Below, piece by piece: positions 54,743-63,230 of a stretch of 64,000 nt of DNA; the stretch's first letter is position 1; each line of letters starts with the position of its first letter. Made by a program: the position numbers and the translations under genes. Location: positions 3,472,001 through 3,536,000 of the forward strand of contig NZ_CP142523.1 of the NCBI RefSeq assembly GCF_036885605.1. The letters are read 5' to 3'. The stretch comes from Janthinobacterium sp. TB1-E2 (GTDB lineage: Bacteria > Pseudomonadota > Gammaproteobacteria > Burkholderiales > Burkholderiaceae_D). The notes under the pieces were generated by a model. It was not told the origin of the DNA, did no database searches, and saw only the letters and a list, made by a program, of their open reading frames with translations.

Positions 54743-55117
54743 TGCGTCTCCTTGTGTATTTTTTTGCCGGCCGGCTGGACACCGTCCGATTTTTCAGAGT
54801 GCAAGCATTGCAGGTGGTAGTCAACTGGTTTTATTATTTGCGCAAGATCACAATACCAGTTTCCATCTTTCCCCAGTAGACCGGCGATGCGGGCCATACC
54901 AGTGGCTGTTTTCCGGCGCGCTGGTATGGTGCCAGGATTGGCACCGGGAGCAGGGCGGGGAAGGGAGGTGGACGCCATGCAAAGCGGCTGGGTCAGCGTC
55001 TGCCCGGGGCACGGTGACAATTGTCGTAGATTTTCATTGTGACAATAAACGTATTTCCACGCTCATCTTCGGCGTATCGTAGCGCATATTGTTATTGCCT
55101 CAACACAGGGGATAAGA
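54743..55117. other. 375-bp intergenic region with two hairpins
   Basis: No gene is supported. It contains CCATACCAG (54894-54902) / CTGGTATGG (54921-54929) and GGTGCCA (54928-54934) / TGGCACC (54939-54945), perfect inverted repeats that overlap slightly and are therefore mutually exclusive. A known c-di-GMP riboswitch was considered but its conserved elements are not present. Confidence 0.55.
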
Positions 55118-55984
55118 ATGAAAACACTGCGCCCGCTGATCTTGTGGCTTTGTGCCATCGCCGCAAGCGCCATGCTTGCCGGTTGTGCAAGTTTGACTCC
55201 CGAGTTGACTCCCCAGCAAAAAAAGCTGGTCGGCGACGCGCAAGGCAGTTGTCCTGGCCTCACGGGAAAGGACGGCCGGCTGGCGTTCCAGCTCAAGGCT
55301 GTCATCGAGGGCAAGGAAATGAACCCCATCACGTCCAAGTGGAGTTCAACGGGCGTCGGTGACGAAGCCCTCGTCAAAACCCTGTTCGCGCAGCGTCTGT
55401 GCATCCTGGAAGAAGTTGTCGCGCGGCCTGACCAGGCGGCCATGACGCAGGTACATGAGCGATATATGGAGGAGATTTCCAAAGGCATCAATGCCTGGCC
55501 CGCCTACGATGCGGCGCAGTACGAGCAGCAGCTGGCGCGCTTGTCCGAGCAAAAAAAGGCGCACAAAGCGGCCGTCAACGCCAGCTTTTCAAACAAGCGC
55601 CATGAGATTGATTCCGTCGTGCTTGTTGCTGCGATTCCTTACTATGATTTCCTGCACATCAAGGAAGTGGATGTGGAGTGGAAAAAAGGAAGCTCGGCAA
55701 GCGGAACGAAAACAGTGAGTTCGGCTGCCAAGGTGTGTTTGACCAGGGACGATTTTTCCGTCGCCATCCGGCCAGCGCTCGACCAGACGCGCGCGATTGT
55801 CATCGGTCTGGGCATGGGAAAGTATGACGAAGCCCAGGCGCTGCGCCTGATGCTCGAGCAGATTTACGAGGCGGGCGGCCAGCGCCTGGTCAACGCGCGC
55901 GACGCCAGCAAGAATGCGCCGGCCGTCACATGCACGGTGTCCGGCGGCGACAGCGCCGTGGCCGCCGGCCCGGTCGCCAAATAA
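55118..55984 (+). CDS. Hypothetical lipoprotein, partner of an OmpA-like gene
   Basis: 288 aa. The lipobox is MLAGC (Cys23), so it is membrane-anchored by a lipid. The rest is mainly charged helical sequence in the first half with a beta-rich part later; not recognised. AGGGGATAAG precedes the ATG. Its stop codon shares a base with the next gene's ATG (TAATG), so the two products are coupled and probably work together in the envelope. Confidence 0.75.
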   Translation: MKTLRPLILWLCAIAASAMLAGCASLTPELTPQQKKLVGDAQGSCPGLTGKDGRLAFQLKAVIEGKEMNPITSKWSSTGVGDEALVKTLFAQRLCILEEVVARPDQAAMTQVHERYMEEISKGINAWPAYDAAQYEQQLARLSEQKKAHKAAVNASFSNKRHEIDSVVLVAAIPYYDFLHIKEVDVEWKKGSSASGTKTVSSAAKVCLTRDDFSVAIRPALDQTRAIVIGLGMGKYDEAQALRLMLEQIYEAGGQRLVNARDASKNAPAVTCTVSGGDSAVAAGPVAK

Positions 55985-56967
55985 TGAGTCCCTATCTGGA
56001 GGTAATCATCCCGGCGGCCCTCGCGCTGTATGCGGGTTTCCAGCACGAGGGCCGCTGCGGCATCGAACCGGCCGTGCATCCGTTGGCAGAAAACATGTGC
56101 CAAGGCTTGCGCGCCGCGTTTGAAGATGGCTGCAAGACACTGCTCGAGGTACCGCTAGGCAAGACCGGCATCTATCTGGCCGGTTCCTATTCCATCAAAC
56201 CCGTTGCGTTTGCGCCACTGGTCAGGGAGAAGGTCCAGGAAGGCTATTCGGCTTGCGTCGGCTTCTGGAGCGGTTCGATCGACTATGACACCTATCAAAC
56301 GGCGCTGGAACAAAAAGCCAGCGTCTTGAACGCGATGTTCAAGGCCGTGGGCAAACCGGGCAGCGCCGCACCGGTTCTCGACGCCGCCGTCGCCAACGGC
56401 GCCCGGCGCGACGACGTGTTGGACGCCAAGGTGGCGGCAGGGGACTTGCGGCAAGATTGCATGGGCCCGTCGGCCATCAAATGCGGGCACATCACGACGC
56501 CGCCGACAGACCAGGTGTTCATCCCGCCAGACCCGCAGACCGTCGATCGCCTGTCCGCCGCCGTGGCCGACCTTGCCCAGGAGATCAAACGCCAGAACGA
56601 GCGCGGCGCGCGCATCGTCGCCGGCGGCTCCGGAAAATGGACGTTGGCAGCCGAAATCAGCTTCGCGACGGGCAGTTCGACACCCAGGCAGGAAGAATGC
56701 GCACGGCTCGCCGCGAACGTGACAAAAGCGTCCCCAAGCGCCCAGCGCGTGCAGATTGCCGGCGCCGCCGACGAGCGCGGCACGCCGGCCGCCAACAACG
56801 CGCTCAGCCTGCAACGCGCGGCATCGGCAGCGCTATGCCTGGCCACGCACGCGCCGGCGAAACGCTGGAGCATTGAAATTACCGGCGCAGGCAGCCTGGC
56901 CACATCGCCAGCCGAATACGCCAGAGCACGCCGCGCAACCGTGTTTGTTTGGGAGCCGCAGCCGTAG
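55984..56967 (+). CDS. OmpA-like C-terminal-domain protein
   Basis: 327 aa from the ATG at 55984. The first two-thirds is not recognised and contains several Cys; only a weak hydrophobic stretch follows the N-terminus (IIPAALALYAG). The last about 110 residues have the OmpA-type peptidoglycan-binding pattern: ISFATGSSTP, IAGAADERGTPAANNALSLQRA and ARRATVFVW. A longer reading from 55930 is antisense-like and not used. It is coupled to the lipoprotein gene. An envelope-spanning role is likely; the secretion route is unclear. Confidence 0.72.
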   Translation: MSPYLEVIIPAALALYAGFQHEGRCGIEPAVHPLAENMCQGLRAAFEDGCKTLLEVPLGKTGIYLAGSYSIKPVAFAPLVREKVQEGYSACVGFWSGSIDYDTYQTALEQKASVLNAMFKAVGKPGSAAPVLDAAVANGARRDDVLDAKVAAGDLRQDCMGPSAIKCGHITTPPTDQVFIPPDPQTVDRLSAAVADLAQEIKRQNERGARIVAGGSGKWTLAAEISFATGSSTPRQEECARLAANVTKASPSAQRVQIAGAADERGTPAANNALSLQRAASAALCLATHAPAKRWSIEITGAGSLATSPAEYARARRATVFVWEPQP

Positions 56968-57219
56968 TGGCACGCGTGGACAGGCCGACGGGCGTGCTGG
57001 ACGATCTGCGAAGCGCGACGCAAAGCAGCAGCCGGAAGCGAACTGGAACAGCCAATACCAAAGATCGGGGAACGTACGGCTGTGTTCGAGCTGGGCGGTG
57101 CAGTGAGGCGCGAAGGAACCGTGCAAAAAGCCATAGCGCCACAGCGGTGCGTAGAAGGCTGAAATCGCATTTGCGATTGTACAAGTTGCAAAATGAGGGA
57201 TTTGACGAATCCACCCATA
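56968..57219. other. Intergenic DNA left of the dif-like site
   Basis: No supported gene. The sequence is of mixed composition and becomes AT-rich just before the dif-like site. Short readings on both strands show no recognisable domain. With the dif-like site (57220-57247) and the following 105 bp, it separates the OmpA-like gene from the TIR operon. Confidence 0.5.
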
Positions 57220-57247
57220 ACTTCGCATAATTTATATTATGTCAAAT
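57220..57247 (+). other. dif: dif-like XerC/XerD recombination site
   Basis: Arms ACTTCGCATAA (57220-57230, XerC-side) and TTATGTCAAAT (57237-57247, XerD-side) flank a 6-bp centre TTTATA. From memory the Neisseria dif (arms AGTTCGCATAA and TTATGTTAAAT, centre TGTATA) differs at three of 28 positions, and the E. coli XerD arm at one. This is either the chromosomal dif, placing the window at the replication terminus, or the dif-like end of an integrated element. The AT-rich island begins immediately to its right. Confidence 0.8.
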
Positions 57248-57352
57248 TATGGACGGAAGTGGACGATACTAATAGTTGCTGTGTTCTACCCTAAGTTAGT
57301 ACTTGAGAAACCGGAAAAATCAATGGTCTGCTTCTCAAGTGTTCTGCTAACT

Positions 57353-58309
57353 TCAGCTCTTCTCAGGCCCACGAATACTCACTGCCTTCGCCACCTCCAC
57401 TACAGCCTCAAGGAATTTTGGATCGAAATCAGCCACAGAGGGACTATTGAGGTTTGTCCCTCTATCAATGTTCCAGTGTTGAAAAACTTCTTTTACCTCA
57501 GGCCAGCTTGCATTCTCTCCGTAAACTCTAAGGAAAAATCGTCCAAAGGAAATCGCATGTATCCGATCCGCACTTTTAAGAGACTCGCTGACATACGATC
57601 GTCCAAGACTGAAGGCGTATTTTGAACAAGCACAAAGCAGACCAACGATCACTAACCCCTTTAATCCAAGGAACAAAAGGTCGGGCCACGCCCTATCATT
57701 AGTAGAGTTGGCACCAATCACACTTATTATTCCAAAAAAAATACCAGCAATAAGAGATAAGAAACCTGCTACGTACCAAACAAAACCTATATATCTATTC
57801 CTCTTTTCTAATCGTTCTAGCAAAATCATAGCTTCGTTAATATACTCAGCAGCATTTTTCTCCATGCGCTGTGATAAAGCTACTTTCTTCTCCTCCTCAG
57901 CCGCCTTCCTACCCACAAACCTAGCAATTGCCTCTTCTACTTTCCCCACTACCTCTGCAATATTAAATTCTAATGCGCCAATATAAAGCAAACTTTGAAT
58001 AGCGGGCGGAACTTGAACCTCATCAATTACAATTGGAATAACTAACATTCTATCTGATTCGCTCGCATAAGCTCTTGCTGCACCTATTTCAATTAATACG
58101 TTCTGCGATGTAACTGAATTTGATGAAATGAAAGCAATAAACACATCTGAAATTTTCAGCCCTTCTGCCAGCGTCTGTTGCCAATTTTGACCGGCAGAAA
58201 TAGAATCAACATCAACAACAATTTCGTGACCATTGAGTTTTAACTGGTCAACAATCTGCTCAACGTACGACCTATCTTTTCGACTGTATGAAACAAAAAT
58301 TTTTGCCAT
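57353..58309 (-). CDS. Membrane-anchored TIR-domain protein (TIR-1)
   Basis: 318 aa from the ATG at 58309 with AGGAAA upstream. Residues 1-133 are a TIR fold: MAKIFVSYSRKD, then GQNWQQTLAEGLKISDVFIAFIS and the putative NAD-cleaving Glu74 in VLIEIGAA. A charged helical segment (about 135-172) is followed by two TM helices (about 174-199 and 209-231) and a C-terminal soluble part of about 85 residues. It should be an inner-membrane effector. It is the last gene of the three-gene operon, 77 bp after TIR-2. GC is far lower than in the rest of the window. The catalytic role is inferred from the family. Confidence 0.88.
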   Translation of the reverse strand: MAKIFVSYSRKDRSYVEQIVDQLKLNGHEIVVDVDSISAGQNWQQTLAEGLKISDVFIAFISSNSVTSQNVLIEIGAARAYASESDRMLVIPIVIDEVQVPPAIQSLLYIGALEFNIAEVVGKVEEAIARFVGRKAAEEEKKVALSQRMEKNAAEYINEAMILLERLEKRNRYIGFVWYVAGFLSLIAGIFFGIISVIGANSTNDRAWPDLLFLGLKGLVIVGLLCACSKYAFSLGRSYVSESLKSADRIHAISFGRFFLRVYGENASWPEVKEVFQHWNIDRGTNLNSPSVADFDPKFLEAVVEVAKAVSIRGPEKS

Positions 58310-58386
58310 AATTAATTTCCTGATGTTCCGTTTAATTGTTGCTGCGTGCACAGATTTAATTTATAAAAATATTGCAACCAAAGATA

Positions 58387-59160
58387 CTAATTCCAAGTAA
58401 GTGGAATAGGCGCCCAACTCCCCTTTGTTCTCTCATGCAAAATAGAACGTAAGTCCATTACTACATCAATAGGAATTTTTATTGTTATATTTAATGAATG
58501 CCCAGGAACAATGGCACGATCAAGCCCAAGTGCTTTAGCCTGACCAGACGTCTGTTCGTCAATCTTTATGGAGTACGACTCACTGGAATTATAGGCGCAC
58601 TCATCTGGAATATCGAATTCAAATTCATCAATATTATTATTGAAAACAAGAAGAAAACTGGATATTGGCTCCATAAAACTTTTTGCCTCAATATTCAATA
58701 TGCACAAACCATTAGATTGAGTTGCATGTGAATGCAAATTCGAAAATAATTCAATTGGAGAGTAGGTGCTCTTCCCCGATATCACATCAACTGCTTGACG
58801 AATTGAGGCGTCAATTCCAGCACTATACAAATCAATATATAAACTCTGCATAAGCAGAATAGGCATTTCACTATTGTCAACTCTGATAGGTATGAATTTA
58901 ATTCCGTTCTTTGCCTTAGCCATAAGGGCATTCTGCCATTCTAATTGAACCATCTTGCTGTTTAGGCTATGTTTAGTAACGAAGAAAAGGAAAAATTTAC
59001 AGCTCGACAATCCGGAATTCATTCTGTCAATAATTCCGTCTCCTGGTTGAATTGACCAGGAATCATAAAAAACTTTCTCTTGGCCGAAAGATTCACTAAG
59101 CGCCACGGCAAATCGTTCAACAATTGCTTTATCGTTATAGTTGTGAGAGACAAAAATCAT
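58387..59160 (-). CDS. TIR-domain protein with unknown C-terminal domain (TIR-2)
   Basis: 257 aa. Residues 1-125 form a TIR domain of the TIR_2 type: MIFVSHNYNDKAIVERFA, FYDSWSIQPGDGIIDRMNSG and KFFLFFVTKHSL, with putative catalytic Glu74 in MVQLEWQNAL. The C-terminal about 130 residues (from about 128) are beta-rich and not recognised. No membrane segment. It is 13 bp downstream of the first operon gene and 77 bp upstream of TIR-1. Possible roles are signal producer or NAD-degrading effector. Confidence 0.87.
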   Translation of the reverse strand: MIFVSHNYNDKAIVERFAVALSESFGQEKVFYDSWSIQPGDGIIDRMNSGLSSCKFFLFFVTKHSLNSKMVQLEWQNALMAKAKNGIKFIPIRVDNSEMPILLMQSLYIDLYSAGIDASIRQAVDVISGKSTYSPIELFSNLHSHATQSNGLCILNIEAKSFMEPISSFLLVFNNNIDEFEFDIPDECAYNSSESYSIKIDEQTSGQAKALGLDRAIVPGHSLNITIKIPIDVVMDLRSILHERTKGSWAPIPLTWN

Positions 59161-59173
59161 ATATCATTCCATT

Positions 59174-59950
59174 TTAATTATCATCATCTGGGTTATAACG
59201 ATACTCAACCTTCAAAGGAAGTTCAGACATCGCATAGTGGACAAATTGTGAGCCAAGCTCGGTAAGTTCGTACAGTTCAGACATATCGAATGCCGACATT
59301 AATGTTTTAGTACTTCCAGCGGGGCTACGTTTAACTGGTTGCTTTGCCAAGAAATTCCCGTTGTAATCCGTTTCTCTATGCTGGCGCATAATTCCACCAG
59401 TCGTCAAATCTCGGAAAAGTAATTTATAGAGATCGGCATCTGCGGAGTCTTCACGCACATTGGGTCTGCCAAGTGAAGTCCAAATTGCCCCCCGTGATGT
59501 ACCTCGACCTCCGGAACGGTAAATGTTTGCAATAACTTCAAAGTGTAATTCTGAATAAGATCCGATCCAATCGATAAATAACCGAACAACGTCGTCACTA
59601 GCCTGGGCTGATGTTGCTGAATTTGATAAAATGTTACGTATCCAAACTCTCTTGGCCTCACTTTCAGCACCGGCCCACTCCCGGAAAGTTTTTCTGACCA
59701 AGCTTTGATATTCTCGACTTTCTACTCGATTTGAAATTCTTTCGTCGTGCAAATCAATTCTTGCCATTATTTCCAAAATTGTAGCTTCTTTTTCACGAAG
59801 CTCGTCATGCAGCATACGAACCCACTCCTCAATGAAGCGATTAACCTTTTCTTGGTCTTTATCGTTCCATTTTTTCACAACTGTCAATGATAAGGCGCCC
59901 AGTATTGCAGCCCCATTTTCTGAATTTATTTCATTAGACTGATTGGTCAT
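59174..59950 (-). CDS. Hypothetical protein, first gene of the TIR operon
   Basis: 258 aa, soluble, AT-rich coding. Residues about 30-75 are a charged helix; AESEAKRVWIRNILSN (about 95-110) and DDVVRLFIDWIGSYSELHFEVIANIYRSGG continue the helical part. The end, MSELYELTELGSQFVHYAMSEL (about 223-243), looks like the last helix of a winged-helix-type fold. Not recognised. Its position at the head of a tight operon with two TIR genes suggests a sensor, regulator or adaptor of the system. It could also be an autoregulator. Confidence 0.75.
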   Translation of the reverse strand: MTNQSNEINSENGAAILGALSLTVVKKWNDKDQEKVNRFIEEWVRMLHDELREKEATILEIMARIDLHDERISNRVESREYQSLVRKTFREWAGAESEAKRVWIRNILSNSATSAQASDDVVRLFIDWIGSYSELHFEVIANIYRSGGRGTSRGAIWTSLGRPNVREDSADADLYKLLFRDLTTGGIMRQHRETDYNGNFLAKQPVKRSPAGSTKTLMSAFDMSELYELTELGSQFVHYAMSELPLKVEYRYNPDDDN

Positions 59951-60392
59951 AATATATAGAAAGTTAATAGATCAAGAGGTTGTTAAACGGAAATAGCTTA
60001 ATGCGAAGTCGAAAAATATCAGCGTTACCACTGTATGCTCAGTCTTGCGGAAAAGCAAACAAACTTTCAAAAATCAGTCAAGAAAATTGAAATTTCTACC
60101 TAGGTATCGAAATACACTCACGTGCTAAAATCACCTCAATCTTGTGTGCCCCGGCCACACCAAAGCCGAAACGGTGTGGGGGCGCGGACGTGACTTGGCC
60201 TAGAAGAACAGCAAGCTGGACTCCAATATGACCATTGTAAAAATGGTCGGGACGGGGGCCGCCACATCAGCTTTTTTTTGGTGGAAATCAGCACGGGTCA
60301 AGGCTATGTGGATAAATTCTAATTTGGACAGACGGACTGGCCTGCTGCATTGACAGAGGCGTGACACCAACAGATAAAGATGAGGCAAGAAT
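59951..60392. other. Upstream region of the TIR operon with a strong hairpin
   Basis: No large gene. The AT-rich part (59951-60120) must hold the leftward operon promoter. A hairpin of CCACACC (60155-60161) / GGTGTGG (60173-60179), extended by GCCC/GGGC, lies at 60148-60183. A 41-residue reading frame on the plus strand (60228-60353) is listed separately as doubtful. Confidence 0.5.
60228..60353 (+). CDS. Possible small protein (41 aa), doubtful
   Basis: An ATG frame of 41 codons starting MTIVKMVGTGAATSAFFWWK, with a short hydrophobic centre and several basic residues. It is bounded by an in-frame stop 27 bp upstream. The ribosome site is weak and there is no recognised family. It sits between a strong hairpin and the small membrane protein gene, a setting reminiscent of small toxin genes, but that is speculation. 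Confidence 0.2.
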   Translation: MTIVKMVGTGAATSAFFWWKSARVKAMWINSNLDRRTGLLH

Positions 60393-60713
60393 ATGGGCTC
60401 AACAATACAACGTGTTGCTCAGTGGGCTGCGCTTCTCGGTGGCATATTCTTCGCCGGTACCTTCGTACTCGGTGGGGCCGTCACAATGCTGACTGATCAG
60501 GCACTCTACTCGAAGGCACTGGAACAAATTCCAGCGACAATTGGGCTACCGTTGGCTGCACTGTGTCTAGTGATGGTTCTTGAGAACACATCCGGTCCGA
60601 TCGAATTTGAAGGCTTAGGATTCAAATTTAAGGGTGCATCAGGGCCGATTGTCCTATGGTGCATAGTGTTCTTATGTATGGCTGCAGCCATTAAGCTGGT
60701 GTGGCTGAACTAA
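60393..60713 (+). CDS. Small conserved-looking membrane protein
   Basis: 106 aa with GAGG 7 bp before the ATG. Three hydrophobic segments at about 11-33, 47-64 and 83-103; the connecting part is ENTSGPIEFEGLGFKFKGASG. GC is intermediate between the island and the chromosome. Function unknown. It lies on the strand opposite the TIR operon and reads away from it, so it may be a separate cargo gene. Confidence 0.7.
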   Translation: MGSTIQRVAQWAALLGGIFFAGTFVLGGAVTMLTDQALYSKALEQIPATIGLPLAALCLVMVLENTSGPIEFEGLGFKFKGASGPIVLWCIVFLCMAAAIKLVWLN

Positions 60714-61061
60714 TCCATCCGTGGTGTATTGAACGGGATATATATCGCCAACCGGGCATGGACAGTTTCATGTTTCGACAAAATGCCTTCCAGACTTTGT
60801 CGCGCGTCTGCAGGTCGGCTCTCCGATGAACCAGCCCAATCCGCCACACCTATTATGGCGGCACCGAGACGAGGCACACTGCCTATGCCCCCATGAAGGG
60901 AGACGCCGGCAGATCAAACGGAAATTGCTGATCCTTGCAAAGCGAAGCCGAATCGGCTTCTCGACCAGCATTCAGAGCACCTCATGCCAGCAAATATAGA
61001 ACGTAATGATTCTCATTTATAGTATAGTGCGCACAGTTTTTCTTCTTATAACCTTGCGCCC
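60714..61061. other. Intergenic region with no supported gene; promoter of the second TonB receptor
   Basis: Short reading frames on both strands (for example a 67-residue one on the minus strand) show no recognisable domain and look like decayed sequence. The right end carries the Fur box at 61004-61020 and the receptor start. Confidence 0.5.
61004..61020 (+). promoter_or_regulatory. Fur box upstream of second TonB receptor
   Basis: TAATGATTCTCATTTAT contains AATGATTCTCATT, an imperfect palindrome matching the Fur consensus core. It is centred about 50 bp before the receptor ATG at 61062. Confidence 0.82.
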
Positions 61062-63230
61062 ATGCCATCGATGCCATCCTCACGCCCTACCCCATTCCCA
61101 GCCCATCATCCCCTCGCCGCCCGTCTGATTCTCGCCGGCCTGCTCATTGCCAGCGTGCCACCGTCCGTCTACGCGCAAGCAACGTCCAGCGCGCCCAACC
61201 CGCTCGCCACCGTGGTCGTTACCGGCCAGACCGAAGCGGATGCCGGCGGGCAGATTGCCAAGAGCGCGCGGGCTGGCTTGCTGGGGGAAAAAGACTTGCT
61301 TGATACGCCGTTCAGCGTCAACAGCTACACGAGCCAGCGCATGCTGGACCAGCAGGCGCTGACTCTGGCCGAGGTGCTGGGTGGCGATCCTTCCACCCGC
61401 TTCACGGGCCAGATCGGCGGCGTCACGGATTCATTTTTCATCCGCGGTTTTCCCCTCAACGAGGGCAATCTGAGTGAAGTGGCGTTCGACGGCGTGTATG
61501 GCGTGTCGCCCAATTACCATTTGTTTACGGAATACCTGCAAAGCGTCGAGGTGCTCAAGGGGCCGGCCGCCTTGCTGTACGGGATGTCGCCGAATGGCGG
61601 CGTGGGCGGTGTCGTCAATGCCGTGCCGAAACGCTCGCTGCCGCGCGACCTGACGCGATTGACGCTCGATTACGGCTCGGGCTCGCAGGCTGGCGCCGCG
61701 ATCGACGTCAGCCGCCGTTTCGGCGAGGAGCGGCGTTTCGGCATCCGCTTCAACGGCTTGCACCGCCAGGGCCATACGCCACTCGACCACCAGACCTCGC
61801 GCGCGGAAGTGGCGGCCGTCGCCCTCGACTACCAGGGCCAGCGGCTGCGCGCCTCGCTCGACGTGATCGAGCAATACCAGTGGATCGACGCGCCCACGCG
61901 CCCTTTCCTCGTGGCCGCGCGCCTGCCCGTGCCGGAAGCGCCTGATGGCCGGCGCAACATCGCCCAGTCCTGGGGCTGGTGGAAGTCCAACGACCTGGCC
62001 ACCTTGGGCAAGCTCGAATACGATGTGAACGACAAGGTGACCGTGTTCGCCGATGTGGGCGGCACGCGCTCCGACGTGTCACGCTATTCGGACCAGACGC
62101 CGACGATCACCAGCGCGGCCGGCGACATGACGGTCACGCCCATGAACTGGAAATTCCGCGTGCGGCGCGCCAGTGGCGACACGGGCGTGCGCACGCGCTT
62201 TCGCACGGGCGGCGTCGAGCATGCGCTGGTCGTGATGGGCAATGTCTACCGCGACGAGTTTGGCAGCGTGAGCAATTCAGGCAAGCTCATCACCTCAAAC
62301 ATCTACCATCCCGTGGCCGTGCCCGACCCCGGTATTGCCGCACCGGCTCGCGTGCCGAAGCTGTCCGCGTCCACCCTCTCCAGCCTGGCCGTGGCCGATA
62401 CGCTGGACATGCTGGACCAGCGCGTGCAGCTGACCCTGGGCGTGCGCCGCCAGCTGGTCGAATCGAAAAACTACCACGCCACCAGCGGCGCGCTGACCAC
62501 GCACTACAAGCAAGGTGCATTGACGCCGCTGGCCGGCATCGTTGTCAAGCCGCTGCGCCACGTGTCGCTGTATGCGAACTATATCGAGGGCCTGAGCAAG
62601 GGCGATATCGCCCCGAACATCGCCGACAACGCGGGCCAGGTCTTCGCGCCCTACAAGAGCAAGCAGTATGAAGTGGGCACGAAGGCCGATTTCGGCGTCG
62701 TGCTGGCGACCCTGGCCGTGTTTCAGGTGACCAAGCCCAGCGGCCAGCTGTATGGCAAGGTCTACAGCATGGATAGCGAGCAGCGCAACAGGGGCCTCGA
62801 GCTGAACCTGTCCGGCGCCGCCAGCAAGACCGTGCGCCTGCTGGCCGGCATTACCCTGCTCGACGGGCGCCTGGTGAAGACCAACAACGCCGCCACCATG
62901 GGCAAGCGCCCCGTGGGCGTGCCGACGTCGATGGCCAACCTGGGCGGCGAATGGGATCTGCCGCACTGGCCGGGCCTGACGGCCACGGGCGCCGTCAGCT
63001 ACACGAGCAAGCAGTTTGTGGATCAGACGAATCTGCAATCGGTGCCGTCGTGGACCAAGGTCGACCTGGGCTTGCGCTACCGCACGGCCATCGCCGGCAA
63101 GGCGACGACCTTGCGCGCCGGCTTGATGAACGCCTTCGACCGCCATTACTGGGCCGGCGTGGCCTCGTATGGCACCGTTTCGCAGTCGGCGCCCCGCACC
63201 ATGCAATTGTCGGCCGCCGTCGATTTCTGA
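61062..63230 (+). CDS. TonB-dependent siderophore receptor
   Basis: 722 aa. The signal peptide ends at about residue 39 (PPSVYAQ). A TonB-box-like ATVVVTGQ (about 49-56) precedes the plug (DSFFIRGFPLNEGN, VEVLKGPAALLYGMSP) and the barrel, which ends in VDF with a terminal Phe. It is a paralogue of the receptor at 5884-8094 with the same overall plug pattern (LLDTPFSVNSYTSQRMLDQQA). It takes up a ferric siderophore and is presumably iron-repressed through the Fur box at 61004. Confidence 0.94.
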   Translation: MPSMPSSRPTPFPAHHPLAARLILAGLLIASVPPSVYAQATSSAPNPLATVVVTGQTEADAGGQIAKSARAGLLGEKDLLDTPFSVNSYTSQRMLDQQALTLAEVLGGDPSTRFTGQIGGVTDSFFIRGFPLNEGNLSEVAFDGVYGVSPNYHLFTEYLQSVEVLKGPAALLYGMSPNGGVGGVVNAVPKRSLPRDLTRLTLDYGSGSQAGAAIDVSRRFGEERRFGIRFNGLHRQGHTPLDHQTSRAEVAAVALDYQGQRLRASLDVIEQYQWIDAPTRPFLVAARLPVPEAPDGRRNIAQSWGWWKSNDLATLGKLEYDVNDKVTVFADVGGTRSDVSRYSDQTPTITSAAGDMTVTPMNWKFRVRRASGDTGVRTRFRTGGVEHALVVMGNVYRDEFGSVSNSGKLITSNIYHPVAVPDPGIAAPARVPKLSASTLSSLAVADTLDMLDQRVQLTLGVRRQLVESKNYHATSGALTTHYKQGALTPLAGIVVKPLRHVSLYANYIEGLSKGDIAPNIADNAGQVFAPYKSKQYEVGTKADFGVVLATLAVFQVTKPSGQLYGKVYSMDSEQRNRGLELNLSGAASKTVRLLAGITLLDGRLVKTNNAATMGKRPVGVPTSMANLGGEWDLPHWPGLTATGAVSYTSKQFVDQTNLQSVPSWTKVDLGLRYRTAIAGKATTLRAGLMNAFDRHYWAGVASYGTVSQSAPRTMQLSAAVDF

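What the first reader, a model, noticed from the sequence alone, without database searches (positions are those of the whole stretch)
57220..57247. dif-like Xer site exactly at the border of the AT-rich island
Seen: a 28-bp sequence with 11-bp XerC/XerD-style arms and 6-bp centre, three mismatches from the Neisseria dif as I remember it. It is followed at once by AT-rich DNA with the TIR genes. Known: dif is a hotspot for elements that use host XerCD (IMEX). Inference: the island may have entered by Xer recombination, and the window is at the replication terminus.
Basis: partly seen in the sequence, partly recalled or inferred. Interest (0 to 1): 0.78.

Follow-up and report, generated by a model that had tools for sequence, protein, structure and literature searches.

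The report
Defence genes beside the chromosome's dif
The 28-base site is the bacterium's real chromosome-unlinking site (dif), and the immune-type genes next to it sit in the wreck of a virus of the kind that uses this site to enter chromosomes, a pattern already described in Vibrio and now seen across a second, unrelated genus.

Summary
The site is the genuine, single chromosomal dif. It occurs once in the 6.31 Mb genome, once in each of the 36 genus members of the first survey, and sits where GC skew and KOPS polarity flip (28 of 28 KOPS motifs in 120 kb point towards it). The window is at the replication terminus.

Relatives carry textbook Xer-integrated prophages exactly at dif: an 8.6 kb filamentous phage (G018) and 11 kb PM2-like tailless phages (G007, G061), each ending in a half-degenerate dif. 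New phages insert next to dif and push older ones outward.

For the window's own TIR island the evidence is indirect. No second dif survives. A 30-bp flank shared with relatives separates dif from the island. Beyond the TIR operon lie fragments of a filamentous-phage Rep gene, in the same order and orientation as better-preserved remains in about ten relatives, which carry other cargo there, including predicted defence genes. So the TIR operon most likely occupies the accessory slot of a decayed dif-integrated filamentous prophage; later arrival is not excluded.

This is a known kind of locus (Vibrio, PMC11630473) in a new lineage.

The parts
57163..57178 (.). Palindrome AATCGCATTTGCGATT, 41 bp left of dif; only copy in the genome; conserved with changes at the same distance in most of the genus. 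Function unknown; candidate accessory protein site
   Evidence: Single genomic match to AATCGCANNTGCGATT; aligned dif flanks of the genus
57220..57247 (+). Chromosomal dif: XerC arm ACTTCGCATAA, centre TTTATA, XerD arm TTATGTCAAAT
   Evidence: XerC and XerD genes in the genome
57248..57277 (+). 'Class A' right flank: 30 bp shared with about 11 other species, also found beyond the distal half-dif of the G018 prophage; probably the left end of the old filamentous prophage
   Evidence: PWM built without the window: 31.2 bits here, 14.3 next best in 120 kb; G018 distal flank
57353..58351 (-). TIR1: TIR domain plus a C-terminal part with two predicted membrane segments (332 aa from GTG; an in-frame ATG at 58309 starts MAKIFVSYSRKD)
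   Evidence: Pfam TIR_2 3.4e-24; PADLOC TIR models, weak PycTM match over the C-terminal part
58387..59160 (-). TIR2 (257 aa)
   Evidence: Pfam TIR_2 2.5e-23; pairs with the 258-aa gene in Rugamonas L185
59174..59950 (-). 258-aa protein of no known family, first gene of the TIR operon; horizontally scattered homologues (56-70% identity)
60114..60203 (-). Relic of filamentous-phage rolling-circle Rep gene, C-terminal half (GQV..HRFGFGVAGAHKI)
   Evidence: blastn 89% over 63 bp to G029, E 1.3e-14; tblastn 60% over 30 aa, E 5.9e-6 over 120 kb, next hit 0.085
60393..60713 (+). 106-aa membrane-type ORF, lying inside the broken Rep relic
   Evidence: position between the two Rep fragments; no family match
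60769..60798 (-). Second fragment of the same Rep gene, more N-terminal (VWKAFCRN)
   Evidence: 21/21 nt identity to G014 and G019, 92% over 24 nt to G023; order and strand as in intact Rep
60973..61062 (+). Right border: sequence shared with G009, G025 and G006 resumes (promoter region of the TonB-dependent receptor gene 61062-63230)

Best explanation
57220-57247 is the chromosomal dif, where XerC and XerD, steered by FtsK along KOPS, resolve chromosome dimers (steering is established knowledge for dif; the KOPS pattern is shown here). In this genus dif is also the attachment site of small temperate phages without their own recombinase. A phage carrying centre plus XerD arm recombines at dif. 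The left junction stays a full dif; the right junction keeps a degenerate XerC arm with centre and XerD arm (shown in G018, G007 and G061; the enzymology is inferred). Because the functional dif stays at the left, each newcomer inserts next to it and pushes older residents rightwards (shown once, in G018). The window holds the remains of an old resident: dif, 30-bp phage end, accessory slot, then pieces of the rolling-circle Rep gene. The three-gene TIR operon (258-aa protein, TIR2, TIR1, transcribed towards dif) occupies the slot in which relatives carry other cargo (Gabija, SIR2/STALD, BstA-like, DUF4062 and unknown genes). The phage part decayed and the distal half-dif was lost, while the cargo stayed. 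That the operon arrived as cargo of that phage, and that it is an anti-phage system, are inferences.
For: dif and terminus. Xer-integrated prophages in relatives: G018 half-site GGTGCAGACTCTTTATATTATGTCAAAT at +8555 followed by the class A flank; G007 (+10651) and G061 (+10999) half-sites with the same right end; L249 with dif and half-site 7.2 kb apart around an inovirus. In near-complete genomes the only other hits of the half-site pattern outside dif lie in, or share the motif of, one conserved coding gene. Phage identity: Zot, secretin, G2P-type Rep; PM2 P2-type coat and GPA Rep. Layering in G018: new phage, half-site, class A flank, cargo, small gene (95.7% identity), Rep relic (96%). Rep relics in the same place and orientation in about ten relatives and in the window. 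Cargo between dif and Rep. G029 and G005 are colinear from dif through cargo to Rep.
Against: No distal half-dif in the window. The Rep relic is short (about 30 + 10 codons); the small gene next to Rep is not detectable and no other phage gene is found. No intact phage with this operon was seen, and the island matches nothing in the phage or plasmid collections. Rep identity between relatives does not follow host-gene identity, so whether one old prophage was inherited or related phages came repeatedly is open. Cargo differs between almost all species, so it has been exchanged after or independently of the phage.
Confidence: 0.66

Rival explanations
1. The TIR operon was inserted later into the hypervariable, gene-poor DNA beside dif by homologous or illegitimate recombination or a lost transposon; the phage relic is just older debris in the same place.
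For: Cargo differs in nearly every species while flank and Rep relic persist. Transposon-like ends land 20-60 bp right of dif in about eight relatives and one such element spans Gabija. No half-dif in the window.
Against: No transposon ends or target duplications found in the window. The operon lies between class A flank and Rep, in the same strand sense as cargo in relatives.
Confidence: 0.27
2. The TIR island is itself an Xer-integrated element (IMEX) bounded by dif and a distal dif-like site, as the first reader suggested literally.
For: Full dif at one end; no recombinase in the island; such elements exist in relatives.
Against: No second site within 62 kb to the right. The class A flank between dif and island is also what lies beyond the distal site of the G018 prophage.
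Confidence: 0.05
3. Chance dif-like sequence; real dif elsewhere.
For: None found.
Against: Unique in the genome, conserved in the genus, at the skew and KOPS switch.
Confidence: 0.01

Closest known systems
Chromosomal dif/XerCD of Proteobacteria (PMC2731167, PMC3025954)
   Same: 28 bp, 11-6-11, single copy, terminus, KOPS polarity, XerC and XerD genes present
   Different: Centre TTTATA rather than the TGTATA seen in order-level relatives; otherwise ordinary
IMEX: filamentous phages integrating at dif (CTXphi type; reviewed in PMC5357621)
   Same: Relatives: full dif left, half-degenerate site right, no own integrase seen, inovirus genes
   Different: The window holds only a relic: no distal site, no structural genes
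Tailless (Vinavirales/Asemoviridae) and filamentous prophages at dif in Vibrio, with accessory defence loci near the prophage border (PMC11630473, PMC9966536)
   Same: Both phage kinds at dif, variable cargo locus near the border, defence genes in it
   Different: Different host lineage; in the window the phage has decayed and the cargo remains; visible layering of successive insertions
IS1202-family 'dif site hunter' insertion sequences (PMC10132070)
   Same: Elements of some relatives sit beside dif in one orientation
   Different: Ours lie 20-57 bp from the XerD arm, not 5 bp from the XerC site; transposase unknown; not present in the window

Membership tests
Chromosomal dif site | 28-bp 11-6-11 site, single copy, conserved in relatives | tested here: met
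Chromosomal dif site | At the switch of GC skew and KOPS polarity | tested here: met
Chromosomal dif site | XerC and XerD encoded in the genome | tested here: met
   XerD 361 bits, over cut-off; best XerC candidate 327 bits, just under the cut-off of 335
Chromosomal dif site | XerCD bind and recombine it | not testable with these tools
   Needs an assay
IMEX (window island) | dif at one end and a dif-like, half-degenerate site at the other | tested here: not met
   No second site
IMEX (window island) | Lacks its own integrase | tested here: met
   Only two TIR genes, a 258-aa and a 106-aa ORF in the island
IMEX (window island) | Phage or other mobile-element genes present | tested here: inconclusive
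   Short Rep relic only
Filamentous prophage at dif (G018, L249) | Rep, secretin, Zot/pI and coat between full and half dif | tested here: met
   (G018); L249: dif and half-site around Rep, SSB and pI-like ORFs
PM2-like tailless prophage at dif (G061; G007 by homology) | Double jelly-roll coat, GPA-type Rep, packaging ATPase between full and half dif | tested here: met
   P2_N 3.2e-30, Phage_GPA 6.3e-75; ATPase phrog_2666; sites; G007 homologues
IS1202 dif hunters (elements in relatives) | 1.5-kb IS, 5 bp from the XerC site, 5-bp target duplication | tested here: not met
   Ends 20-57 bp from the XerD arm; no transposase found

The most novel reading that the evidence does not exclude
The XerD side of dif works genus-wide as a conveyor for immune genes: small Xer-integrating phages bring defence cargo in a border slot, newcomers enter at dif and push older ones outward, phage parts decay and the defence genes are kept; transposon-like elements that hunt dif (and in one case a plasmid's resolution-type palindrome) add further defence cargo such as Gabija.
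Probability: 0.4. Interest if true: 0.58.

Novelty: new member of a known kind. Interest (0 to 1): 0.42.

Why it matters
It shows in a second, unrelated lineage that dif is a standing entry point for small filamentous and tailless phages and that defence genes accumulate there. Because dif can be located in any genome, the neighbouring slot can be read systematically as a source of new defence systems, and the layering gives a relative age of insertions.

Tried and rejected
Second dif in the window: PWM scan of 120 kb, nothing above the shuffled null. Four extra half-site hits (G000:3369871, G015, G036, G002): G000, G015 and G036 lie in the same coding gene (..LQYDLYYVKNNS..), G002 has the same motif variant; set aside as chance. 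Flanking repeats around the island: only short chance-like families. Island DNA in phage and plasmid collections: no match. TIR1 and the 258-aa gene in relatives: no orthologous operon in the genus (TIR1) or in 145 family genomes (258-aa gene). Rep versus host identities to test vertical inheritance: not correlated, inconclusive. XerC half-site at the outer end of the mirror-image prophage left of dif in G009: not found. AlphaFold model of the 258-aa protein: mean pLDDT 67, too weak to search.

Full report
THE SITE. Window 57220-57247 reads ACTTCGCATAATTTATATTATGTCAAAT. The window is part of a single 6,313,111-bp contig, in which this is the only match with up to three mismatches. A survey of 60 relatives found exactly one match in each of 36 genus members, none with the reversed control pattern, and two order-level relatives with centre TGTATA. 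In twenty 20-kb stretches, GC skew is positive left of dif and negative right of it, apart from a near-zero stretch directly to the right. In 120 kb around dif, GGGNAGGG occurs 16 times on the + strand, all left of dif, and 12 times on the - strand, all right of it. The genome encodes XerD (361 bits) and an XerC candidate (327 bits, cut-off 335). This is the chromosomal dif and the window is at the terminus.

THE BORDER. The flanks of 38 relatives' dif sites were fetched and oriented, later joined by three more genomes. Left of dif about 95 bp are conserved in most of the genus, including a palindrome AATCGCATTTGCGATT that is unique in this genome. Right of dif there are several alternative flanks. 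In the window it is 'class A', about 30 bp (57248-57277), scoring 31.2 bits against a profile built from ten other sequences, next best in 120 kb 14.3. Homology then stops; it resumes at about 60973-60992 before the TonB receptor gene. So the variable island is about 57278-60972, and the first gene's stop is 106 bp from dif.

INTACT XER ELEMENTS IN RELATIVES. A profile scan showed in G018 a site GGTGCAGACTCTTTATATTATGTCAAAT 8555 bp right of dif, with centre and XerD arm intact and XerC arm degenerate, and in G007 ATGACGTTGTATTTATATTATGTAAAAT at +10651. A genus-wide search for TTTATATTATGTNAAA added G061 (+10999, same right end as G007). In near-complete genomes the only other extra hits are in one conserved coding gene or share its motif. 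The G018 element is a filamentous phage: Rep, secretin, Zot/pI and coat. The G061 element, with G007 homologous to it, carries a coat protein matching PM2 P2 (3.2e-30), a GPA-type Rep (6.3e-75), a packaging ATPase and an endolysin, so it is PM2-like. An IMG/VR contig (L249) holds dif and a half-site 7.2 kb apart around a filamentous phage; the homologue of the small gene next to Rep lies 30 bp from its dif. This is the anatomy expected of XerCD-integrated phages.

LAYERING. Beyond G018's distal half-site comes the class A flank, then 2.8 kb of cargo, then the small gene (95.7% identity) and a Rep relic (96%) of an older phage. So the newest phage entered at dif and displaced an older unit with the layout class A flank, cargo, small gene, Rep. 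The same unit lies directly at dif in G004, G005, G014, G016, G019, G023, G025 and G029; G010 and G024 keep a Rep relic behind other flanks. G029 and G005 are colinear from dif to Rep at 79% identity.

THE WINDOW'S COPY. The window carries class A, then the TIR operon, then two pieces of the same Rep gene: 60114-60203 (60% over 30 residues, E 5.9e-6 in 120 kb, next best 0.085; the DNA is 89% identical to G029 over 63 bp) and 60769-60798, both on the - strand and in the right order. A 106-aa ORF lies between them. I therefore read 57248 to about 60800 as a decayed dif-integrated filamentous prophage whose accessory slot holds the TIR operon. Shown: order, strand, relic, and corresponding slots in relatives. 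Inferred: that the operon came with that phage, and loss of the distal half-dif. Rep identities between species do not follow host-gene identities, so one ancestral prophage and repeated arrivals cannot be told apart.

CARGO. In relatives, the DNA between dif and Rep holds a PDC-S21 candidate and a BstA-like protein (G018), Gabija and a ThsA-like SIR2 protein (G024), DUF4062 (G023), and several genes of unknown function. In G002 and G012, Gabija lies beside dif without a detected Rep relic (for G012 by sequence resemblance to G002, not scanned). No enrichment test against control loci was made. The window's operon has two TIR proteins and a 258-aa protein without a family. Its homologues are scattered widely; in Rugamonas it is also followed by a TIR2 homologue, whereas seven others have a hydrophobic N-terminal segment and no adjacent TIR gene.

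COMPARISON WITH WHAT IS KNOWN. Filamentous and tailless prophages at dif, with accessory loci near the prophage border enriched in defence genes, are described for Vibrio (PMC11630473; PMC9966536). The present locus is a member of that kind in another lineage.

SIDE FINDING. In about eight relatives an element end AGTACGCCGACA[T/G]CATTnTGAG starts 20-57 bp right of dif. Of the matches with 0-1 mismatches in 40 genomes, all are within 2.1 kb of dif except one, which lies about 36 bp from a palindrome next to a tyrosine-recombinase gene on another replicon of G010. In G002 two inverted ends enclose Gabija. It resembles the 'dif site hunter' IS1202 family (PMC10132070) but differs in side and spacing; no transposase was identified.

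Noticed in passing
L084:9017+85 to +7423; also right of dif in L058, L067, L078, L065, L121, L122, L082; L170/L171 (G010:C2:194145): Transposon-like ends AGTACGCCGACA[TG]CATTnTGAG start 20-57 bp right of the dif XerD arm in about eight species and beside a resolution-type palindrome in G010; in G002 they enclose Gabija. Looks like a new kind of dif-hunting element; transposase not identified.
   Followed up: partly
L064 -9049 to -968 (G009) and L081 -4018 to -1223 (G001): PM2-like phage genes also lie LEFT of dif, in mirror order; no outer half-site was found, so how they entered is unexplained.
   Followed up: partly
window 57163-57178: Perfect-arm palindrome AATCGCATTTGCGATT at a fixed distance (41 bp) left of dif, unique in the genome and conserved with variation in the genus; possible accessory site for Xer recombination.
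   Followed up: partly
window 59174-59950; L186-L192: Homologues of the 258-aa protein begin with a hydrophobic glycine-rich segment and lack a TIR neighbour; the window and Rugamonas versions lack that segment and have TIR2 next to them, as if an effector in cis had been swapped for one in trans.
   Followed up: partly
L057 and L061 just right of dif; G024:C2:23248 (L172): A second recurrent end sequence (CGTTCGTTTGCACAAAGTTGTTCCCGAAATTTGCATAAATTTGTTCC) occurs right of dif in two species and again next to an AGTACGCC end on another replicon.
   Followed up: no
window 54980-57125: The left side is variable too: the lipoprotein and OmpA-like genes between chitinase and dif were found at this place in only one other species (G002, 71% identity).
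   Followed up: no
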